IMG/VR virus record: IMGVR_UViG_3300037882_002560
Span: 1-34,564 of that record
Direction: 5' to 3' (one strand)
DNA length: 34,564 nt
Source of the DNA: a virus
Part shown: piece by piece, positions 21,303 to 30,499 of the stretch
Position numbering within the stretch: the stretch's first letter is position 1
How the letters are laid out: each line of letters starts with the position of its first letter
The notes under the pieces: generated by a model
Seen by the model: the letters and a program-made list of their open reading frames with translations, nothing else
Databases searched by the model: none
What the model was told of the DNA's origin: nothing
Translations under genes and position numbers: made by a program

Positions 21303-21358
21303 TCGATCTCGCTTAGGCAGAAAAACTTGGATCGCAACTGTTTCTACATACACCATTT

Positions 21359-21395
21359 AATTTTTTCAAACTTACCGGGTATGTTTGAAAAAATT
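21359..21395 (-). promoter_or_regulatory. Dispersed 28-bp motif, copy A, with perfect 13-bp inverted arms
   Basis: On the minus strand the gap between portal and protease genes contains AAACATACCCGGTAAG then TTTGAAAAAATT, matching the motif seen at 24673, 30207 and 30416 at most positions. Here it is also embedded in perfect 13-bp arms AATTTTTTCAAAC / GTTTGAAAAAATT around an 11-base centre. It could be an operator, a phage promoter or a hairpin at the mRNA end. Confidence 0.55.
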
Positions 21396-21401
21396 AAAAG
21401 G

Positions 21402-24672: not shown

Positions 24673-24700
24673 AAACATACACGGTTACTTTGAAAAAACT
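24673..24700 (+). promoter_or_regulatory. Dispersed 28-bp motif, copy B, in the terminase divergent region
   Basis: AAACATACACGGTTA followed by CTTTGAAAAAACT lies in the 123-base gap between the divergent large terminase and small-terminase-like genes, pointing at the latter. It ends 36 bases before that gene's ATG, a spacing similar to copy E and its downstream gene. A conserved element this close to a start in a gap with no other recognisable signal is probably a promoter or operator. Confidence 0.6.
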
Positions 24701-24736
24701 GGTGGCGTCCCCGAAGCCGTGTGTTACTGCGTTCTT

Positions 24737-25225
24737 ATGAACACATTCCCACCCCTCCGCGTCGCCGTCCTCTCGGCTCTTAGAGAGCTGAAAGAGGATC
24801 TTTCCCATCTCGATCGTAACAGCTGTCCTTACGACGAGGAAACCAAGAAGCTCATCAAAGCCCTTCTGGAGCCGAAGGTCGTCGAGAAGATCGTCGAAAA
24901 GCAGATTACCGGCCCGGGCGCGGTTGGTCGCCCGAGCAAAGACATCAAGCTCAGCGAAGAGGATCAGCAAAAGGTTCTCGACGAAATCCTGACCAACCTT
25001 AAGGATCTTCGAGATTTGAAGTTGGATGAGATGGATACCAACGCCAAGATCCAAGTCATCAAGAGCCGCTCCACCCTCACCGAGCAGATGCTTAAGATGC
25101 AGGAGCGGCACACCTCGGTCGTCAAGACCGAGCAATTCAAAGAAACGGTCATCCGCATTCTCGATGAGATCGTCGATGAGAAGGGCCGCGAACAATTCAT
25201 GAAACGTTTGGAGGAATTCCGATGA
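24737..25225 (+). CDS. Putative terminase small subunit, 162 aa
   Basis: A highly charged, mostly helical protein. A GPGAVGRPSKD segment near residue 60 resembles an AT-hook-like DNA contact. The helical C-terminus (DTNAKIQVIKSRSTLTEQML, then FKETVIRILDEIVDEKGREQF) recalls small terminase oligomerisation regions as I remember them. It is next to the large terminase but on the opposite strand. No clear ribosome-binding site precedes the ATG; a GTG six codons upstream is an alternative. It overlaps the next gene by ATGA. A small terminase recognises the packaging site and regulates the large subunit. A coiled-coil regulator is the alternative. Confidence 0.55.
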   Translation: MNTFPPLRVAVLSALRELKEDLSHLDRNSCPYDEETKKLIKALLEPKVVEKIVEKQITGPGAVGRPSKDIKLSEEDQQKVLDEILTNLKDLRDLKLDEMDTNAKIQVIKSRSTLTEQMLKMQERHTSVVKTEQFKETVIRILDEIVDEKGREQFMKRLEEFR

Positions 25226-25362
25226 AAAATTTCCTGACCGCTATGACCTTCATGGCCGTTGTGATCCTCTACGAGGCAGAACTTAACGTCGCAGCGGGCA
25301 CGATCGGCCTTTTTGCCTTCGTTTTCTTCAGCTGGGCCACCTATAAAGAAGAAAGTTTCTAA
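25222..25362 (+). CDS. Small membrane protein, 46 aa
   Basis: The ATG overlaps the upstream stop (ATGA), with a perfect GGAGG eight bases before it. The stop is one base before the primase gene. The product has two hydrophobic stretches, LTAMTFMAVVILY and AAGTIGLFAFVFFSWA, with a charged tail YKEESF, so it probably forms a two-helix hairpin in the inner membrane. The strong ribosome-binding site and tight coupling on both sides support it being real. Function unknown; membrane anchoring of replication or a small inhibitor are guesses. Confidence 0.7.
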   Translation: MKNFLTAMTFMAVVILYEAELNVAAGTIGLFAFVFFSWATYKEESF

Positions 25363-25363
25363 A

Positions 25364-27835
25364 ATGACCTACATTTTTCGTGATCACGCCCCCGCCTACT
25401 GGGCGGCGGGCCTTCCAGTCATGCCTCTGAAGCGGTGGAATTCGAACAGCAAAGGGGCTGGTAAGGCCCCAATTCTGAACGAATGGACCCAGTATGGCGA
25501 GTATATGCCGTCAGAAGCAGTGCGCGCACTGTGGATTGAGAGCTATCCGGAGTCCAATATCGGCCTTCCTTTCGGCCCCGCGTCGGGTTTGTGTGCGATT
25601 GACATCGACTCCGAGGACGAAGCCATCGTCGAAACCATCATAAATGCGCTTCCGCCCTCACCTTGGCGGCGCATTGGCCGAAAAGGCATGGGCCTAATCT
25701 ACCGGTGGCAGGGTCAGTCCAACTTCAAGCTGCGTGACAGCGAGAACCAGTCGTTGGTCGAGTTTCTCGGCAAGGGCAACCAGATGGTGTTGCCGCCTTC
25801 GATCCACCCGCAGACTGAGCGTCCCTATACAAGCGACACTAACCTGTGGGAGGTGTTGGACAAGATCCAGCCCCTGCCTTTGGACATCGAGCGCGTCCTC
25901 CGCGAAGCTCTTTCAGGAGTGGCTGGCCTCTCGATCGCCCAAACCGGTCGGTCTGCCCCGCTCGACGTGGTCCCGCAGGGCGAGCGTGATATCCAGATGG
26001 TCCGTCACGCGGGCTATTTGGCCCGAGTTGTGCGCGGCATCGACAAAAACCAGAAGTTCACGCTGGCCGAAGCCATCCGTCACATGAGCCACTGGGTCGA
26101 AACCTTCACTGCACATACTGCGGGCGGTGATGATATGGACCCTGACAAGGGCGTGGCGAAGCTCGTCGAGTTCCTGTTGAAGGACGTTGAGGCGGGCAAC
26201 ACCCTGCCCAACGGCTGGGACGCGGGCCTCAGTGAAGAACAGCGCCAGCATCCGGCCATTGCTTCGATGATTGAGCGCAATGAGATCCAACGCTGGACCT
26301 ACACCAAGGCGCGGTCGTGGCTGGAGGCGCAGGTTGCAATCGATCCGGACAATGATGACCGCAATCTGGAACTTGTGGAAGAGATGATCCAGAACATTGC
26401 CAAGGATGAGAACTTCTCGGCAACGACGTTCAACGTTTTGATCACTGACATTCAGCGCATCGCTGGCAAGAACATCAAATTCTCAAAGCCCGATCTTCGC
26501 AACGCCTTTTTAGGGGCCCGGAAGGGGGACATTGAGGAGATGCAGGATCAGCACTCGATTGCTGCGGCAGTTCTTGAAGAACTCAACCGTGGCGGCGAGA
26601 TGAAGTTCTACCAAGGCTCGTTCTGGCAGTGGAGCGGCTCGTGCTTCGCCAAGGTTGAGGCTGATGACGTGTATGTCAAGATCGCCGAGACCTTCAAGGG
26701 CAACGCGCTGGCCAAACGCCATACCGACTACAATGCGATCACGCTTTGCATGACCAAGATTGCCCGGAGCGATTTGGCCTCAGAGCTTGAGGATGGGATC
26801 AACTTTGCCAACGGTTTCCTCGACAGCAATCTCGTTCTGCATGACCACTCACCGAAATACGGTAAGACCTTCACGATGCCGTTCAACTACGTGCCGGAGC
26901 GGGCCACCGAGGCGCATAAGTGGTTCGAGTATCTCGAACGGTCGTGGGGCGACGATGAGGATTATGTCGACAAGGTTGCCGCGCTTCAGGAGGCATTTGC
27001 TGCCACTATGTTCGGCATTGCAACCCGCTACCAGCGTGTCTTCATCTTGCACGGCAAGGCAGGGACCGGCAAGACGCAGGCTTTGGAAGTGCTGTTGTCG
27101 ATGATGCCTCCTGCTGCGCAGTGTTCGGTGCCTCCCGCTTTGTGGGGTGAACGCTTCCAGCTGGCCCCGATGGTGGGGAAACATCTCAATCTGTGCGGGG
27201 AGCTTCCTGAGGAGGCCTCGATTGAGGGTCGCATCTTCAAGGAGGTTGTGGAAGGGACGCTGCAAAACACGGAACTGAAGATGTCGCAAATCTTCCAGTT
27301 CCGTCCGATCGCCGCACACTGGTTCGGTTCGAACCACTTGCCGCGTTCGCGTGACACGTCTCGTGGCTTCGTCCGTCGTCTTCAGTTCTTCGACTTCAAT
27401 CGTGTTGTGCCGACGAATGAGAAGATCGCCGACTTCCATAAGGTGCTGGTTGCTGAAGAGCGTGAGGCTATTGCCGCATGGGCTGTGCAGGGTCTGGCGC
27501 GTCTCATTCAGAATGGTGACTACACTCAGCCGTCCTCGCATTTGAAGCGGCTCAATCAGGTCACCCGCGCCAACAACTCGGTCGCGGCCTTCCTTCAGTC
27601 CAGCGACAAGGTTCGTGAGGACAAAGGTGGGGAGTGTAACGCCCGCAACGTCTTCGATTGCTACAGCGATTACATGAAGACGACGGCACGGGGCTGGGTC
27701 GTGAACTATGAGCGCTTCCTGCACATGCTTGAAGAGCTTGGCTACGACTATGAGATGGGCACGGCGGTTGACGGCACCCAGCAGCATCGCGTCAAGGGGT
27801 TGAAGGTGATGGGGTCGGCAGCCCTGTTGCGCTAG
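25364..27835 (+). CDS. Primase-polymerase / superfamily 3 helicase
   Basis: 823 residues combining two replication activities. The N-terminal PrimPol domain (about 1-200) has the catalytic CAIDID (D80, D82) and the family's LVEFLGKGNQMVLPPSIHP stretch. The C-terminal P4/D5-type SF3 helicase has Walker A GKAGTGKT (about 564-571), a Walker-B-like LNLCGE near 608, motif C GSNHLP near 654, and the arginine region SRGFVRRLQFF just after. Such enzymes prime and unwind DNA at phage origins. The ATG at 25364 is used; the upstream frame overlaps the 46-residue gene. It is translated just after that gene, with only a weak ribosome-binding site, which suggests coupling. Confidence 0.93.
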   Translation: MTYIFRDHAPAYWAAGLPVMPLKRWNSNSKGAGKAPILNEWTQYGEYMPSEAVRALWIESYPESNIGLPFGPASGLCAIDIDSEDEAIVETIINALPPSPWRRIGRKGMGLIYRWQGQSNFKLRDSENQSLVEFLGKGNQMVLPPSIHPQTERPYTSDTNLWEVLDKIQPLPLDIERVLREALSGVAGLSIAQTGRSAPLDVVPQGERDIQMVRHAGYLARVVRGIDKNQKFTLAEAIRHMSHWVETFTAHTAGGDDMDPDKGVAKLVEFLLKDVEAGNTLPNGWDAGLSEEQRQHPAIASMIERNEIQRWTYTKARSWLEAQVAIDPDNDDRNLELVEEMIQNIAKDENFSATTFNVLITDIQRIAGKNIKFSKPDLRNAFLGARKGDIEEMQDQHSIAAAVLEELNRGGEMKFYQGSFWQWSGSCFAKVEADDVYVKIAETFKGNALAKRHTDYNAITLCMTKIARSDLASELEDGINFANGFLDSNLVLHDHSPKYGKTFTMPFNYVPERATEAHKWFEYLERSWGDDEDYVDKVAALQEAFAATMFGIATRYQRVFILHGKAGTGKTQALEVLLSMMPPAAQCSVPPALWGERFQLAPMVGKHLNLCGELPEEASIEGRIFKEVVEGTLQNTELKMSQIFQFRPIAAHWFGSNHLPRSRDTSRGFVRRLQFFDFNRVVPTNEKIADFHKVLVAEEREAIAAWAVQGLARLIQNGDYTQPSSHLKRLNQVTRANNSVAAFLQSSDKVREDKGGECNARNVFDCYSDYMKTTARGWVVNYERFLHMLEELGYDYEMGTAVDGTQQHRVKGLKVMGSAALLR

Positions 27836-27897: not shown

Positions 27898-28159
27898 TAG
27901 AGTCCAAAAAACCGAAAAATTATGGTGAGATTGAAGGGGGTATAATTCGACTATATATAGGTTATTTGAGGCAAAAAAACGTGTTACCCTAGGCACTTAG
28001 CTATAAAAAACACTACGCTTGCAGTTATGGGGGTATCCAGGCTTATTCGTTTATATATGTGAGGAATTGCGTTGCACCGATTGCAGCGCCGCCGGGCGGC
28101 CCGTGAAAAGGTCGCTTCCCGAGACGGGAAAGCTGTGCCTAAAGCTAGCGAACGGTGCA

Positions 28160-28174
28160 ACTTATAGTATAAGT
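28160..28174. promoter_or_regulatory. 15-bp palindrome ACTTATAGTATAAGT, operator-like copy 1
   Basis: A perfect odd-centred palindrome preceded by GGTGCA, 41 bases upstream of the ATG at 28216. The same site recurs twice at 29134-29180. Repeated palindromes in gene leaders are typical of dimeric repressor operators. The site also contains TATAGT, which could act as a -10 box. Confidence 0.6.
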
Positions 28175-28215
28175 CAACGTCAACCGCCTAAACAGGCAAA
28201 CAAGGAAGTAAGACA

Positions 28216-29034
28216 ATGGAAAATCCCGTATTGGAAAAGCTGGCCAATGAATTGACCAACACCCCCGCAATCGGCGATAACAGCAAGGCCTTTGGTATTG
28301 ATATGCCGGGCGATACGCAATTGACGGTTCAGCCCGGCGCAATCAGTGCACCAATTGCAGCGCCTAGCGACGCAATCGCTGAAGCAACCAACAATGAAAG
28401 CCCAGATGACGCCATTGCGGCCTTCCGCGCCTATGTTGTGGCGTCAACGCTGGCTTTCACAGAAGCAGTAAAGACAGCACAAGAAACAGAAACTATGACG
28501 CAAAAGCAATGGGGGCATAAGGCCTTGCGTATTGCTTTTCATCATAAGCTAGCAACCACTGACAGCGTTATCAATGACACTCGGGTTATTGTTGGTTGGG
28601 ATACTTTGGTTGGCCCAGTCGGAAAAAAGCTGGCCAATTCATATAACCAGTGGTTTAACAATTTGCGTATGGTGTCGGAACGTTGGGCAACGCTTGATGC
28701 CGCAACGCAAGCCGACTTGTTGAACGGCGCGGCTTCGATTTCAACGCTGGCAACCCGTTGGAAAGAAGCGGCTACCAAAGCCAAGCGCGAGGCCACCAAA
28801 GCCGCTAAAGCGATTGAGGACAACGCTAAGGCAGATGCTGCCGACAATGCCAAGCCCGAGGCGGATGATACGCCTGTTACGATGGCCGACGTTATCGCGC
28901 ACCTGTTGGATATGGTGCGCGATGCCAGCGACGCCGATATTCTGGCCAATGATATGGCGTTCAATCGCCTAGCTTGTGCCTATGCCGAGCGTTACAACTT
29001 GGTATTGCCGGAAAGCGAAGCCGTCAACGGCTAA
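28216..29034 (+). CDS. Unknown early protein, 272 aa
   Basis: I do not recognise it. AAGGA precedes the ATG. The N-terminal 60 residues are acidic and Pro/Ala rich with AIGDNSKAFGID, a short motif I recall from alphaproteobacterial phage proteins but cannot assign. The middle (residues 75-200) is helical with several Trp (QKQWGHKALRIAF, YNQWFNNLRMVSERWATLD), then a Lys/Ala-rich helix (EAATKAKREATKAAKAIED) and an acidic C-terminal domain. Its codons are more A/T-rich than those of the neighbouring primase. It has its own leader, with a 15-bp palindrome on each side of the gene, so it is likely a separately regulated single-gene unit. Confidence 0.75.
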   Translation: MENPVLEKLANELTNTPAIGDNSKAFGIDMPGDTQLTVQPGAISAPIAAPSDAIAEATNNESPDDAIAAFRAYVVASTLAFTEAVKTAQETETMTQKQWGHKALRIAFHHKLATTDSVINDTRVIVGWDTLVGPVGKKLANSYNQWFNNLRMVSERWATLDAATQADLLNGAASISTLATRWKEAATKAKREATKAAKAIEDNAKADAADNAKPEADDTPVTMADVIAHLLDMVRDASDADILANDMAFNRLACAYAERYNLVLPESEAVNG

Positions 29035-29060
29035 GCCCGCCGCAACCCTGCCTTAACTTC

Positions 29061-29087
29061 CCCGCCCCGGCCCACAGCCGGGGCGGG
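29061..29087. terminator. 11-bp perfect GC hairpin after the 272-aa gene
   Basis: CCCGCCCCGGC and GCCGGGGCGGG flank CCACA, a perfect and very stable stem 26 bases past the stop. There is no T tract on either strand, so it may be a pause or mRNA-stabilising structure rather than a classical terminator. Confidence 0.5.
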
Positions 29088-29133
29088 CGAAGTCGTGCGC
29101 CTGGCGCGCGTGTGTCCGCACCCTCGGTGCAAC

Positions 29134-29180
29134 ACTTATACTATAAGTCGTTTTGGCCTAAAACGCTTATAGTATAAGCG
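29134..29180. promoter_or_regulatory. Tandem 15-17-bp palindromes, operator-like copies 2 and 3
   Basis: ACTTATACTATAAGT (29134-29148) and CGCTTATAGTATAAGCG (29164-29180) have centres 31 bases apart, close to three helical turns, so bound dimers would face the same side. Between them CGTTTT and AAAACG form another inverted repeat, making the whole 47 bases nearly symmetric. The block ends 38 bases before the ATG at 29219. Very likely a control region for that gene. Confidence 0.65.
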
Positions 29181-29218
29181 ATTTCAGCGTTTTAACGCGA
29201 TTGCTGGAGTTTTCCAAA

Positions 29219-29722
29219 ATGTCACAGTCCGCCCAAATCGGCGAAGCTTGGGGCTTTTGCCGCGACACCATGAAAGGCGAGAGCGAAGCCGACGCCTACG
29301 CCCTTGCGGAAATTCGCCGCTATCGCCCGCGAACGATGGCTGAAATTATGTCAGTCCGCGCCAAAGCCATGCGCCCGGAAATCGTCCCGGCCATGCCCGC
29401 CCGAGACCCCCGCGACAACGCCAAACGGGCAGACTATAATGCTTTGCAGAGGTATGCGCGCCAAGTTAGGTCTGCAATCCGATCTGAGGCCCCTCCAGAG
29501 CCAAACCCGGCTCCTCCGCCCCCACCCTGCGCGACGCTTGTTAAAGCGTCTGAGAAGTCGTCTGCGCCCAGATATGACGATAAGGCCCGCAAGTTGAAGC
29601 GGGACCACATGATTGCCATGTCCAAAATGGTCTATTCGGATTATCAGCCGTCCGAGGAGGATATTATCTATGCGTTCGGATCCGTTGCCGAATGGGAGCA
29701 TGATAAAGCCGCTGCCGTATGA
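29219..29722 (+). CDS. Unknown protein with proline-rich linker, 167 aa
   Basis: The ATG at 29219 has TGGAG about ten bases upstream. It begins MSQSAQIGEAWGFCRDTMKG with a helical region, then a Pro-rich stretch near residues 95-110 (PPEPNPAPPPPP), and a second charged helical region ending YSDYQPSEEDIIYAFG. No family recognised. It overlaps the next gene by 53 bases and lies directly downstream of the twin palindromes, so it probably starts an operator-controlled two-gene unit. Confidence 0.7.
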   Translation: MSQSAQIGEAWGFCRDTMKGESEADAYALAEIRRYRPRTMAEIMSVRAKAMRPEIVPAMPARDPRDNAKRADYNALQRYARQVRSAIRSEAPPEPNPAPPPPPCATLVKASEKSSAPRYDDKARKLKRDHMIAMSKMVYSDYQPSEEDIIYAFGSVAEWEHDKAAAV

Positions 29723-30197
29723 TTGCGGGTTGAGCTTGCCTTTGGATGATCGTCTGGCGTGCGAGCGTTTCAGGCGTGTTCGAGGCGATATCCAACGCCG
29801 ACGCCTGGATTTAGGCGATGCCCAAGAACTGTGTGCTACCATGCGCACTGTCGGTGGGCATGCCTGTGCTGTTGTCTTTGGCTGGAAGCCTTACGGGCGT
29901 AAGCGAGTCAACCAGCTTTGCCAGCATTTGGCCGATGATCCAGAAGTGGCCCGCATGACACGGGAGAACCTTCAGGCGTGTGGCGTCGATCAGGCCATGA
30001 TGTTGTGCTTGGCGTTGGCGCAGGCAGGGTGGAAGCCTACGGGAAGGGTAGGGTGGCCCGGAATTATTAGGGTTGCCCTGCTTGACCTGAAATCCAGAGG
30101 GTTTTCGGCGAAGGAGGTTGCTGCCCGCTTTGGTTTGCCGTTGGCGTTGGTGAAACGCGGGATGTTACCCGTGGAGAGCCAGTTGCATTGGTTTTAG
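29670..30197 (+). CDS. Unknown protein with C-terminal helix-turn-helix-like motif, 175 aa
   Basis: The ATG at 29670 is chosen because GAGGAGG lies nine bases upstream; the frame extends further but that part overlaps the preceding gene. The C-terminal RGFSAKEVAARFGLPLALVKRG has the spacing of a helix-turn-helix, suggesting DNA binding. The middle is helical (RKRVNQLCQHLADDPEVARM, then GVDQAMMLCLALAQAG). It shares an operon with the previous gene and could be the regulator acting at the nearby palindromes or 28-bp motifs, but that is inference. The stop is seven bases before the large inverted repeat. Confidence 0.72.
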   Translation: MRSDPLPNGSMIKPLPYDCGLSLPLDDRLACERFRRVRGDIQRRRLDLGDAQELCATMRTVGGHACAVVFGWKPYGRKRVNQLCQHLADDPEVARMTRENLQACGVDQAMMLCLALAQAGWKPTGRVGWPGIIRVALLDLKSRGFSAKEVAARFGLPLALVKRGMLPVESQLHWF

Positions 30198-30206
30198 AGG
30201 GATTTC

Positions 30207-30234
30207 AGTTTTTTCAATTTAACCGTGTATGTTT
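30207..30234 (-). promoter_or_regulatory. Dispersed 28-bp motif, copy C (reverse orientation)
   Basis: Reading the minus strand gives AAACATACACGGTTA then AATTGAAAAAACT, identical to copy D. It is part of the left arm of the quasi-palindrome and faces back toward the 3' end of the 175-residue gene. No minus-strand gene starts near it, so as a promoter it would produce antisense RNA. Confidence 0.6.
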
Positions 30235-30272
30235 TCGGTAAGCCATTGAAAAGCCATGATTTAGTCCGAGTA

Positions 30273-30291
30273 GGGCCGTTTCGGCCCTTTT
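30273..30291 (+). terminator. Rho-independent terminator within the quasi-palindrome
   Basis: GGGCCG, TTT, CGGCCC followed by TTTT: a compact 6-bp GC stem with a short T run, about 75 bases past the stop of the 175-residue gene. It lies in a loop that breaks the symmetry of the surrounding inverted repeat, as if inserted into one arm. Confidence 0.7.
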
Positions 30292-30415
30292 CGGAGCTAT
30301 TGTCTCTATATAATATTTTTTTCTCTCTCTCTCTTAGAGAGTTGAAGAAAAATATATATATAGGAACAATATCTCCGATTTTATGGAAAAAGGCTCAATT
30401 TCAATGTCTTACCGA

Positions 30416-30443
30416 AAACATACACGGTTAAATTGAAAAAACT
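30416..30443 (+). promoter_or_regulatory. Dispersed 28-bp motif, copy D
   Basis: AAACATACACGGTTA then AATTGAAAAAACT, differing from copy B at only two positions. It lies in the right arm of the quasi-palindrome, facing the plus-strand run of small genes that begins about 110 bases downstream. Confidence 0.6.
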
Positions 30444-30499
30444 GAATTTCTCCACAGCCAAAGCCAACACCCTCCGCAGCCGCAACGACCTCCACAGCC

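What the first reader, a model, noticed from the sequence alone, without database searches (positions are those of the whole stretch)
30204..30446. Large nested quasi-palindrome with 39-bp perfect arms in a gene-free, AT-rich gap
Perfect 39-bp inverted arms, extended by a mismatch plus eight pairs, enclose a second imperfect inverted pair and a small central hairpin, making most of 243 bases self-complementary. It is far more symmetric than a terminator needs, and one arm carries what looks like an inserted terminator. It could be a replication origin, a cruciform or protein-bound control region, or a double-stranded RNA element cut by RNase III. Perfect arm identity suggests recent duplication or active maintenance.
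Basis: seen in the sequence. Interest (0 to 1): 0.75.

Follow-up and report, generated by a model that had tools for sequence, protein, structure and literature searches.

The report
Palindromic phage origin at genome-end repeat
The large palindrome is real and belongs to a whole group of about 80-kb phages: each carries, at about the same place, a differently spelled palindrome that is usually its most AT-rich spot, often where DNA strand bias flips, and at or near the edge of its terminal repeat, so it is probably where copying of the genome starts and where one end of the packaged genome is set.

Summary
In detail: 39 perfect pairs, 47/48 over 48-nt arms (30204-30251 / 30399-30446), a 147-nt AT-rich nested spacer, far beyond chance. 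The window is a fragment of an uncultured phage related to ~80-kb siphophages. Relatives (IMG/VR contigs; cultured Seuss, Lumi, JWF, 2-1, EAb13) carry an AT-rich palindrome of unrelated sequence, mostly 2-4 kb downstream of the prim-pol/helicase gene. Four facts converge on it. (1) It is the lowest-GC 150-bp site of the genome in 14 of 15 near-complete relatives. (2) Cumulative GC skew peaks inside it in the window (30275) and within 312 bp in 8 of 15 relatives, apart from the transcription divergence. (3) The outer edge of the direct terminal repeat lies inside the palindrome in three Acinetobacter phages mapped with PhageTerm and in Seuss; at the AT-rich centre's edge in Lumi; 350-430 bp away in two. 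(4) Arm flanks outside the binding motif differ between relatives yet stay complementary. Best reading: a replication origin (AT-rich unwinding region between inverted protein-binding arms) that is also the outer boundary of the terminal repeat. Main rival: a T7-like hairpin used only for concatemer processing. An RNA element is not supported. Window-specific termini are predictions.

The parts
30204..30251 (+). left arm of the palindrome (48 nt; outer 39 nt perfect)
30399..30446 (-). right arm of the palindrome
30252..30398 (.). AT-rich spacer (36% GC; the lowest-GC 150 bp of the window starts at 30301), candidate unwinding region; GC-skew maximum at 30275
30291..30378 (.). inner imperfect inverted pair (19 of 22) around a CTCTC-TTA-GAGAG hairpin (30329-30341)
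30273..30291 (+). GC-rich hairpin followed by T4, terminator-like, downstream of the upstream gene
   Evidence: read from sequence
30210..30229 (-). arm motif copy 1 (TACACGGTTAAATTGAAAAA)
30421..30440 (+). arm motif copy 2
30505..30524 (+). arm motif copy 3 (CACACGGTTAAATCGAAAAA), outside the palindrome
24678..24697 (+). arm motif copy 4, in the divergent gap between the terminase large-subunit gene (-) and the gene before primase (+); 27 of 29 identical over 24673-24701
27906..27999 (+). conserved element just downstream of the primase gene (CGAAAAATTATG...AAAAACGTGTTACCCTA), predicted inner edge of the terminal repeat; predicted genome left end near 27946 (by analogy, not measured)
27946..30398 (.). 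predicted direct terminal repeat (about 2.45 kb), from the conserved element to the inner side of the right arm (prediction)
   Evidence: analogy with EAb13, Seuss, Lumi
25313..27835 (+). prim-pol / helicase gene (PF09250 + PF19263; phrog_1156)
28216..29034 (+). 272-aa gene inside the predicted terminal repeat, conserved in several uncultured relatives; function unknown
29613..30197 (+). 194-aa all-helical protein with a C-terminal helix-turn-helix, directly upstream of the palindrome; candidate binder

Best explanation
The palindrome is the phage's replication origin and at the same time the outer boundary of its direct terminal repeat. A dimeric phage DNA-binding protein (the neighbouring helix-turn-helix protein, or the helicase's own end domain) binds the motifs in the two inverted arms. 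This positions the prim-pol/helicase to open the AT-rich spacer, possibly aided by extrusion of the arms as hairpins, and replication leaves in both directions on the circularised or concatemeric genome. When concatemers are packaged, one end is made at the conserved site behind the primase gene and the other inside this palindrome; synthesis starting at the palindrome and running back through the repeat would supply the second repeat copy. Shown: anatomy, positional conservation, AT minimum, GC-skew switch, coincidence with mapped repeat edges in some relatives, maintained arm complementarity. Inferred: origin activity, the binding protein, hairpin extrusion, the repeat-duplication step, and the terminus positions in the window phage.
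For: The best separated-arm repeat downstream of the primase gene lies at +1.9 to +4.2 kb in most closer relatives, with spacers mostly 22-44% GC against 52-66% genome GC; upstream controls score at most 15. It is the lowest-GC 150-bp site genome-wide in 14 of 15 genomes. GC-skew maximum at 30275 in the window; distance 0, 0, 0, 11, 52, 79, 185 and 312 bp in eight relatives and under 2.6 kb in four more. TA skew instead peaks at the gene divergence in at least seven genomes, so the GC switch is not simply transcription. The opposite skew extreme is roughly half a genome away in most of these; in the three annotated records read there it lies among ordinary genes at or near gene convergence. 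Terminal-repeat outer edge inside the palindrome in EAb13, fJoAci01, fJoAci04 and Seuss. Repeated phage-specific dyads, e.g. GATTACTGAGTAATC in the L008 phage and AAGTCGCACAGCGACTT at 11 places in the L015 phage.
Against: The GC-skew sign is opposite to the bacterial rule (maximum, not minimum, at the proposed origin), which taken literally would make this the terminus. Three of 15 genomes (EAb13, L008 phage, L035 phage) have the skew maximum elsewhere. In JWF and 2-1 the deposited repeat edge lies 350-430 bp from the palindrome. EAb13 has a second AT-rich palindrome about 0.5 kb further on. The genomes are related, so counts are not independent trials. Element positions in two genomes (L005, L043) were set by eye because the arm finder missed them. 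No replication data exist.
Confidence: 0.5

Rival explanations
1. Concatemer-processing hairpin, as proposed for T7: a nick in the palindrome lets the 3' end fold back and prime synthesis through the terminal repeat, duplicating it; the hairpin is then trimmed, giving the right end. Replication starts elsewhere and ends here.
For: Read-mapped repeat edge inside the palindrome between AT-rich centre and right arm. Fold-back copying would by itself keep arms perfect while their sequence drifts, as seen. With the usual skew sign the site would be a terminus. A hairpin containing the terminal repeat is reported in T7 infection (PMC4281155).
Against: Does not require the site to be the most AT-rich of the genome or to carry operator-like dyads; an origin on the opposite side would make most genes head-on to replication; no comparable AT-rich site was found at the skew minimum.
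Confidence: 0.28
2. Transcription control hub: the arms are operators or promoter elements for a phage regulator of the early genes, also acting at the terminase/primase divergent gap; the palindrome as a whole has no DNA-processing role.
For: Arm or repeat-edge motif recurs in the terminase/primase divergent gap in the window, Seuss, Lumi and the L008 phage, and at many places in the L015 phage.
Against: Operators do not need 40-60-nt complementary arms with maintained pairing outside the motif, nor coincidence with skew switch and repeat edge. No sigma-70-like promoter was found there, though the scan covers one promoter type only.
Confidence: 0.14
3. Structured RNA: a long double-stranded transcript, terminator or RNase III substrate between two co-directed genes.
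For: Very stable predicted fold; a terminator-like hairpin inside.
Against: No Rfam family above threshold (the best hit, a plant miRNA model, is far below its cut-off). DNA landmarks coincide. Arm lengths, loops and sequences vary freely between relatives.
Confidence: 0.05
4. Mobile palindrome (MITE-like insertion) or assembly artefact.
For: Perfect arms in one metagenomic contig.
Against: Same place, unrelated sequences in many phages, including cultured genomes; the window's motif was found in no other IMG/VR contig.
Confidence: 0.02

Closest known systems
Terminal-repeat boundary palindromes of Seuss, EAb13, fJoAci01/04 (same wider group)
   Same: AT-rich palindrome 2.3-2.6 kb downstream of the P4-type primase gene; repeat edge inside it
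   Different: Sequence unrelated; their arms are shorter or less perfect; the palindromes are not annotated in the records read
Bacteriophage T7 concatemer-junction hairpin
   Same: Palindromic DNA near the terminal repeat, suited to duplicate the repeat
   Different: Here it lies at the outer (early-gene) side of a ~2-kb repeat and also marks the AT minimum and skew switch; T7 details rest on memory plus one citing paper (PMC4281155)
Phage P4 ori (alpha primase-helicase) and SV40-type origins of SF3 helicases
   Same: Primase-helicase gene of P4 type; repeated or inverted binding sites beside an AT-rich tract (comparison from memory)
   Different: P4 decamer iterons are not enriched here; long near-perfect arms are not part of P4 ori

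Membership tests
Replication origin with unwinding region | extreme AT-rich tract | tested here: met
   lowest-GC 150 bp of the window and of 14 of 15 relatives
Replication origin with unwinding region | repeated initiator-type binding sites beside the tract | tested here: inconclusive
   4 motif copies in the window, 0 expected, 3 of them at the site; that an initiator binds them is untested
Replication origin with unwinding region | strand-composition switch at the site | tested here: met
   GC-skew maximum at 30275 and within 312 bp in 8 of 15 relatives, but sign opposite to bacteria and 3 of 15 fail
Replication origin with unwinding region | replication initiates there | not testable with these tools
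   needs an infection time course
P4-type ori | P4 decamer iterons GGTGAACAGT at the site | tested here: not met
   one exact match, far from the site; count as expected by chance
T7-type concatemer hairpin | palindrome at or near the terminal repeat | tested here: met
   in Seuss, EAb13, fJoAci01/04; in the window by prediction only
T7-type concatemer hairpin | hairpin-ended DNA intermediate in infected cells | not testable with these tools
   no infection data
Protelomerase target (N15 telRL) | gapless central palindrome without long spacer | tested here: not met
   147-nt spacer here, tens to about 200 nt in relatives
Known structured RNA family | Rfam match above gathering score | tested here: not met

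The most novel reading that the evidence does not exclude
One element does two jobs: it is the replication origin and, through fold-back DNA synthesis from the same palindrome, it duplicates the terminal repeat and sets the right genome end. Fold-back copying keeps the arms perfect, so the signal is the structure and not the sequence, which lets every phage lineage spell it differently.
Probability: 0.25. Interest if true: 0.8.

Novelty: new variant of a known kind. Interest (0 to 1): 0.62.

Why it matters
How phages with long direct terminal repeats duplicate those repeats, and where most of them start replication, is open outside a few models such as T7. A palindrome that coincides with the AT minimum, the GC-skew switch and the repeat edge in a group with cultured members (Seuss on Caulobacter, Lumi on Xylophilus) makes both questions directly testable, and gives a rule for predicting origin and termini in metagenomic members of the group.

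Tried and rejected
DNA search of INPHARED with the region: no match. Helix-turn-helix protein and the 272-aa gene as single queries in IMG/VR: no relatives; iterated profiles were needed. Exact arm motif in IMG/VR: none, so no close relatives for within-species compensation. EAb13/TCUP2199/fJoAci/Mystique alignment: only one covarying arm position, with mixed states; weak. Phage single-subunit RNA polymerase (to explain scattered motifs): no match, and the control search did not ring either, so inconclusive. Endonuclease VII-type resolvase: found in only 3 of 15 genomes, so not a general explanation. Fold of the helix-turn-helix protein: good model (pLDDT 86), only generic HTH resemblance, best Z 5.0 to Spo0J/ParB over 52 residues; nothing with Foldseek E <= 0.001. 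An initial idea that terminal-repeat genes of the cultured phages are homologues of the HTH protein was dropped: the profile found none. Gene context of the L015-phage motif copies used crude ORF calls and was not decisive. Literature searches for an origin or palindrome at terminal repeats found nothing directly relevant.

Full report
OBSERVATION. Arms 30204-30251 and 30399-30446 pair at 47 of 48 positions (39 perfect from the outside), with 147 nt between them. The spacer holds a terminator-like hairpin (30273-30291), a second imperfect pair (30291-30378) and a small central hairpin. Single-strand folding is far below shuffles (z -13.2 as RNA; -15.5 as DNA). The arm motif recurs at 30505-30524 and 24678-24697, with none expected by chance.

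CONTEXT. The window is a 34.6-kb linear virus record. Structural genes run leftwards from a terminase large-subunit gene; a prim-pol/helicase gene (25313-27835) and small genes run rightwards. Relatives found through the prim-pol protein are contigs of up to about 83 kb in IMG/VR and cultured phages Seuss, JWF, 2-1, Lumi and several Acinetobacter phages.

THE ELEMENT IS A GROUP FEATURE. A palindrome with a different sequence sits at about the same place in many relatives, usually right after a helix-turn-helix gene homologous to 29613-30197. A gap-free search for separated arms put the best hit of the 10 kb downstream of primase at +1.9 to +4.2 kb in most relatives of the closer group, the spacers being AT-rich; shuffles and upstream stretches reached at most 15, against 45 in the window and up to 59 in relatives. 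In L013 and L043 intervening genes move it further out, still behind the helix-turn-helix gene. Several more distant contigs (L026, L028, L032, L033, L050, L057) show no clear element, and in L005 and L043 it was located by eye. Each phage has its own dyad motif in the arms, often repeated nearby.

TERMINAL REPEATS. The cultured relatives have direct terminal repeats beginning downstream of the primase gene: Seuss 1748 bp, Lumi 2298, EAb13 2177, JWF 1466, 2-1 1542 (exact end identity). EAb13, Lumi and fJoAci01/04 termini were determined from reads with PhageTerm; how the others were set was not checked. The outer edge lies inside the palindrome, between AT-rich centre and right arm, in Seuss, EAb13, fJoAci01 and fJoAci04; at the end of the AT-rich stretch in Lumi; and 350-430 bp before the palindrome in JWF and 2-1. 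The inner edge carries a sequence-conserved element, which in the uncultured relatives appears as CGAAAAA-TTATG...ATGATTG...AAAAACGTGTTACCCTT (13 sequences aligned; window 27906-27999). Its match to the cultured inner edges is by eye. So one edge is conserved in sequence and the other in structure. The window's own repeat, about 27946-30398, is a prediction by analogy.

ORIGIN-LIKE SIGNALS. In 14 of 15 near-complete genomes the element is the lowest-GC 150-bp site of the genome. Oriented on the primase gene, the detrended cumulative GC skew has its maximum at the element within 312 bp in 8 of 15, and within 2.6 kb in 12 of 15; in the window the maximum of the 18-34.5 kb part is at 30275, inside the palindrome. 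In the window the skew is +0.029 over the rightward primase-region genes and +0.061 over the predicted repeat, then -0.071 beyond the palindrome, so the switch is not at the change of gene direction. TA skew, in contrast, peaks at the terminase/primase gene divergence in at least seven genomes. The opposite extreme is roughly half a genome away in most of these, without a matching AT-rich site. The sign is the reverse of the bacterial rule, which is the main reason for not being more confident: read literally, the site would be a terminus. Against that, an origin at the opposite side would make most genes head-on to replication.

ARM PAIRING. L017, L044 and L021 share the dyad GAAGTGACT..GTCACTT in both arms. 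The 23-nt flanks of that motif differ between the phages, with 7-9 positions changed on both sides and pairing kept; own arms pair at 18-21 of 23, exchanged arms at 9-15. Complementarity outside the binding motif is therefore maintained, either by selection for a hairpin or cruciform or by copying of one arm from the other; the data do not separate these. The arms in that comparison were set in register by hand.

MOTIF ELSEWHERE. The arm motif also occurs in the terminase/primase divergent gap in the window, Seuss and the L008 phage, and a motif from just beyond the repeat edge does so in Lumi; the L015 dyad occurs 11 times within one mismatch in its genome. The binding protein therefore probably also acts in transcription. 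The binder is unknown; the neighbouring helix-turn-helix protein has a confident model with a generic HTH but no detectable homologue in the cultured phages.

VERDICT. An origin-like palindrome at the outer edge of the terminal repeat is the best account (0.5), a pure concatemer-processing hairpin the main rival (0.28), a regulatory hub third (0.14). Position and conservation are shown; function is inferred.

Noticed in passing
window 21356-21398: A second, shorter inverted repeat (16-nt perfect arms, 11-nt loop) in an AT-rich spot (31% GC over 100 bp at 21321), between two leftward genes; looks like a terminator.
   Followed up: no
window 27906-27999 and 12 relatives: Conserved non-coding element directly downstream of the primase gene ending in CGTGTTACCCTT, the likely sequence-specific terminase site; conserved although the far-edge palindrome is not.
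   Followed up: partly
L069 (EAb13) 2650-2769 and fJoAci01/04, TCUP2199 equivalents: A second strong AT-rich palindrome about 0.5 kb beyond the repeat edge, before the first early gene, in the Acinetobacter phages.
   Followed up: no
L015 genome (G005), 11 sites: The dyad AAGTCGCACAGCGACTT recurs around the genome within one mismatch, several copies near gene boundaries; looks like an operator network.
   Followed up: partly
L008 15068-15190: Array of GATTACTGAGTAATC-type palindromes between the main palindrome and the next gene.
   Followed up: no
window 24719-25225: Gene before primase (phrog_30421, unknown function), divergent from the terminase large-subunit gene; a candidate terminase small subunit by position.
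   Followed up: no
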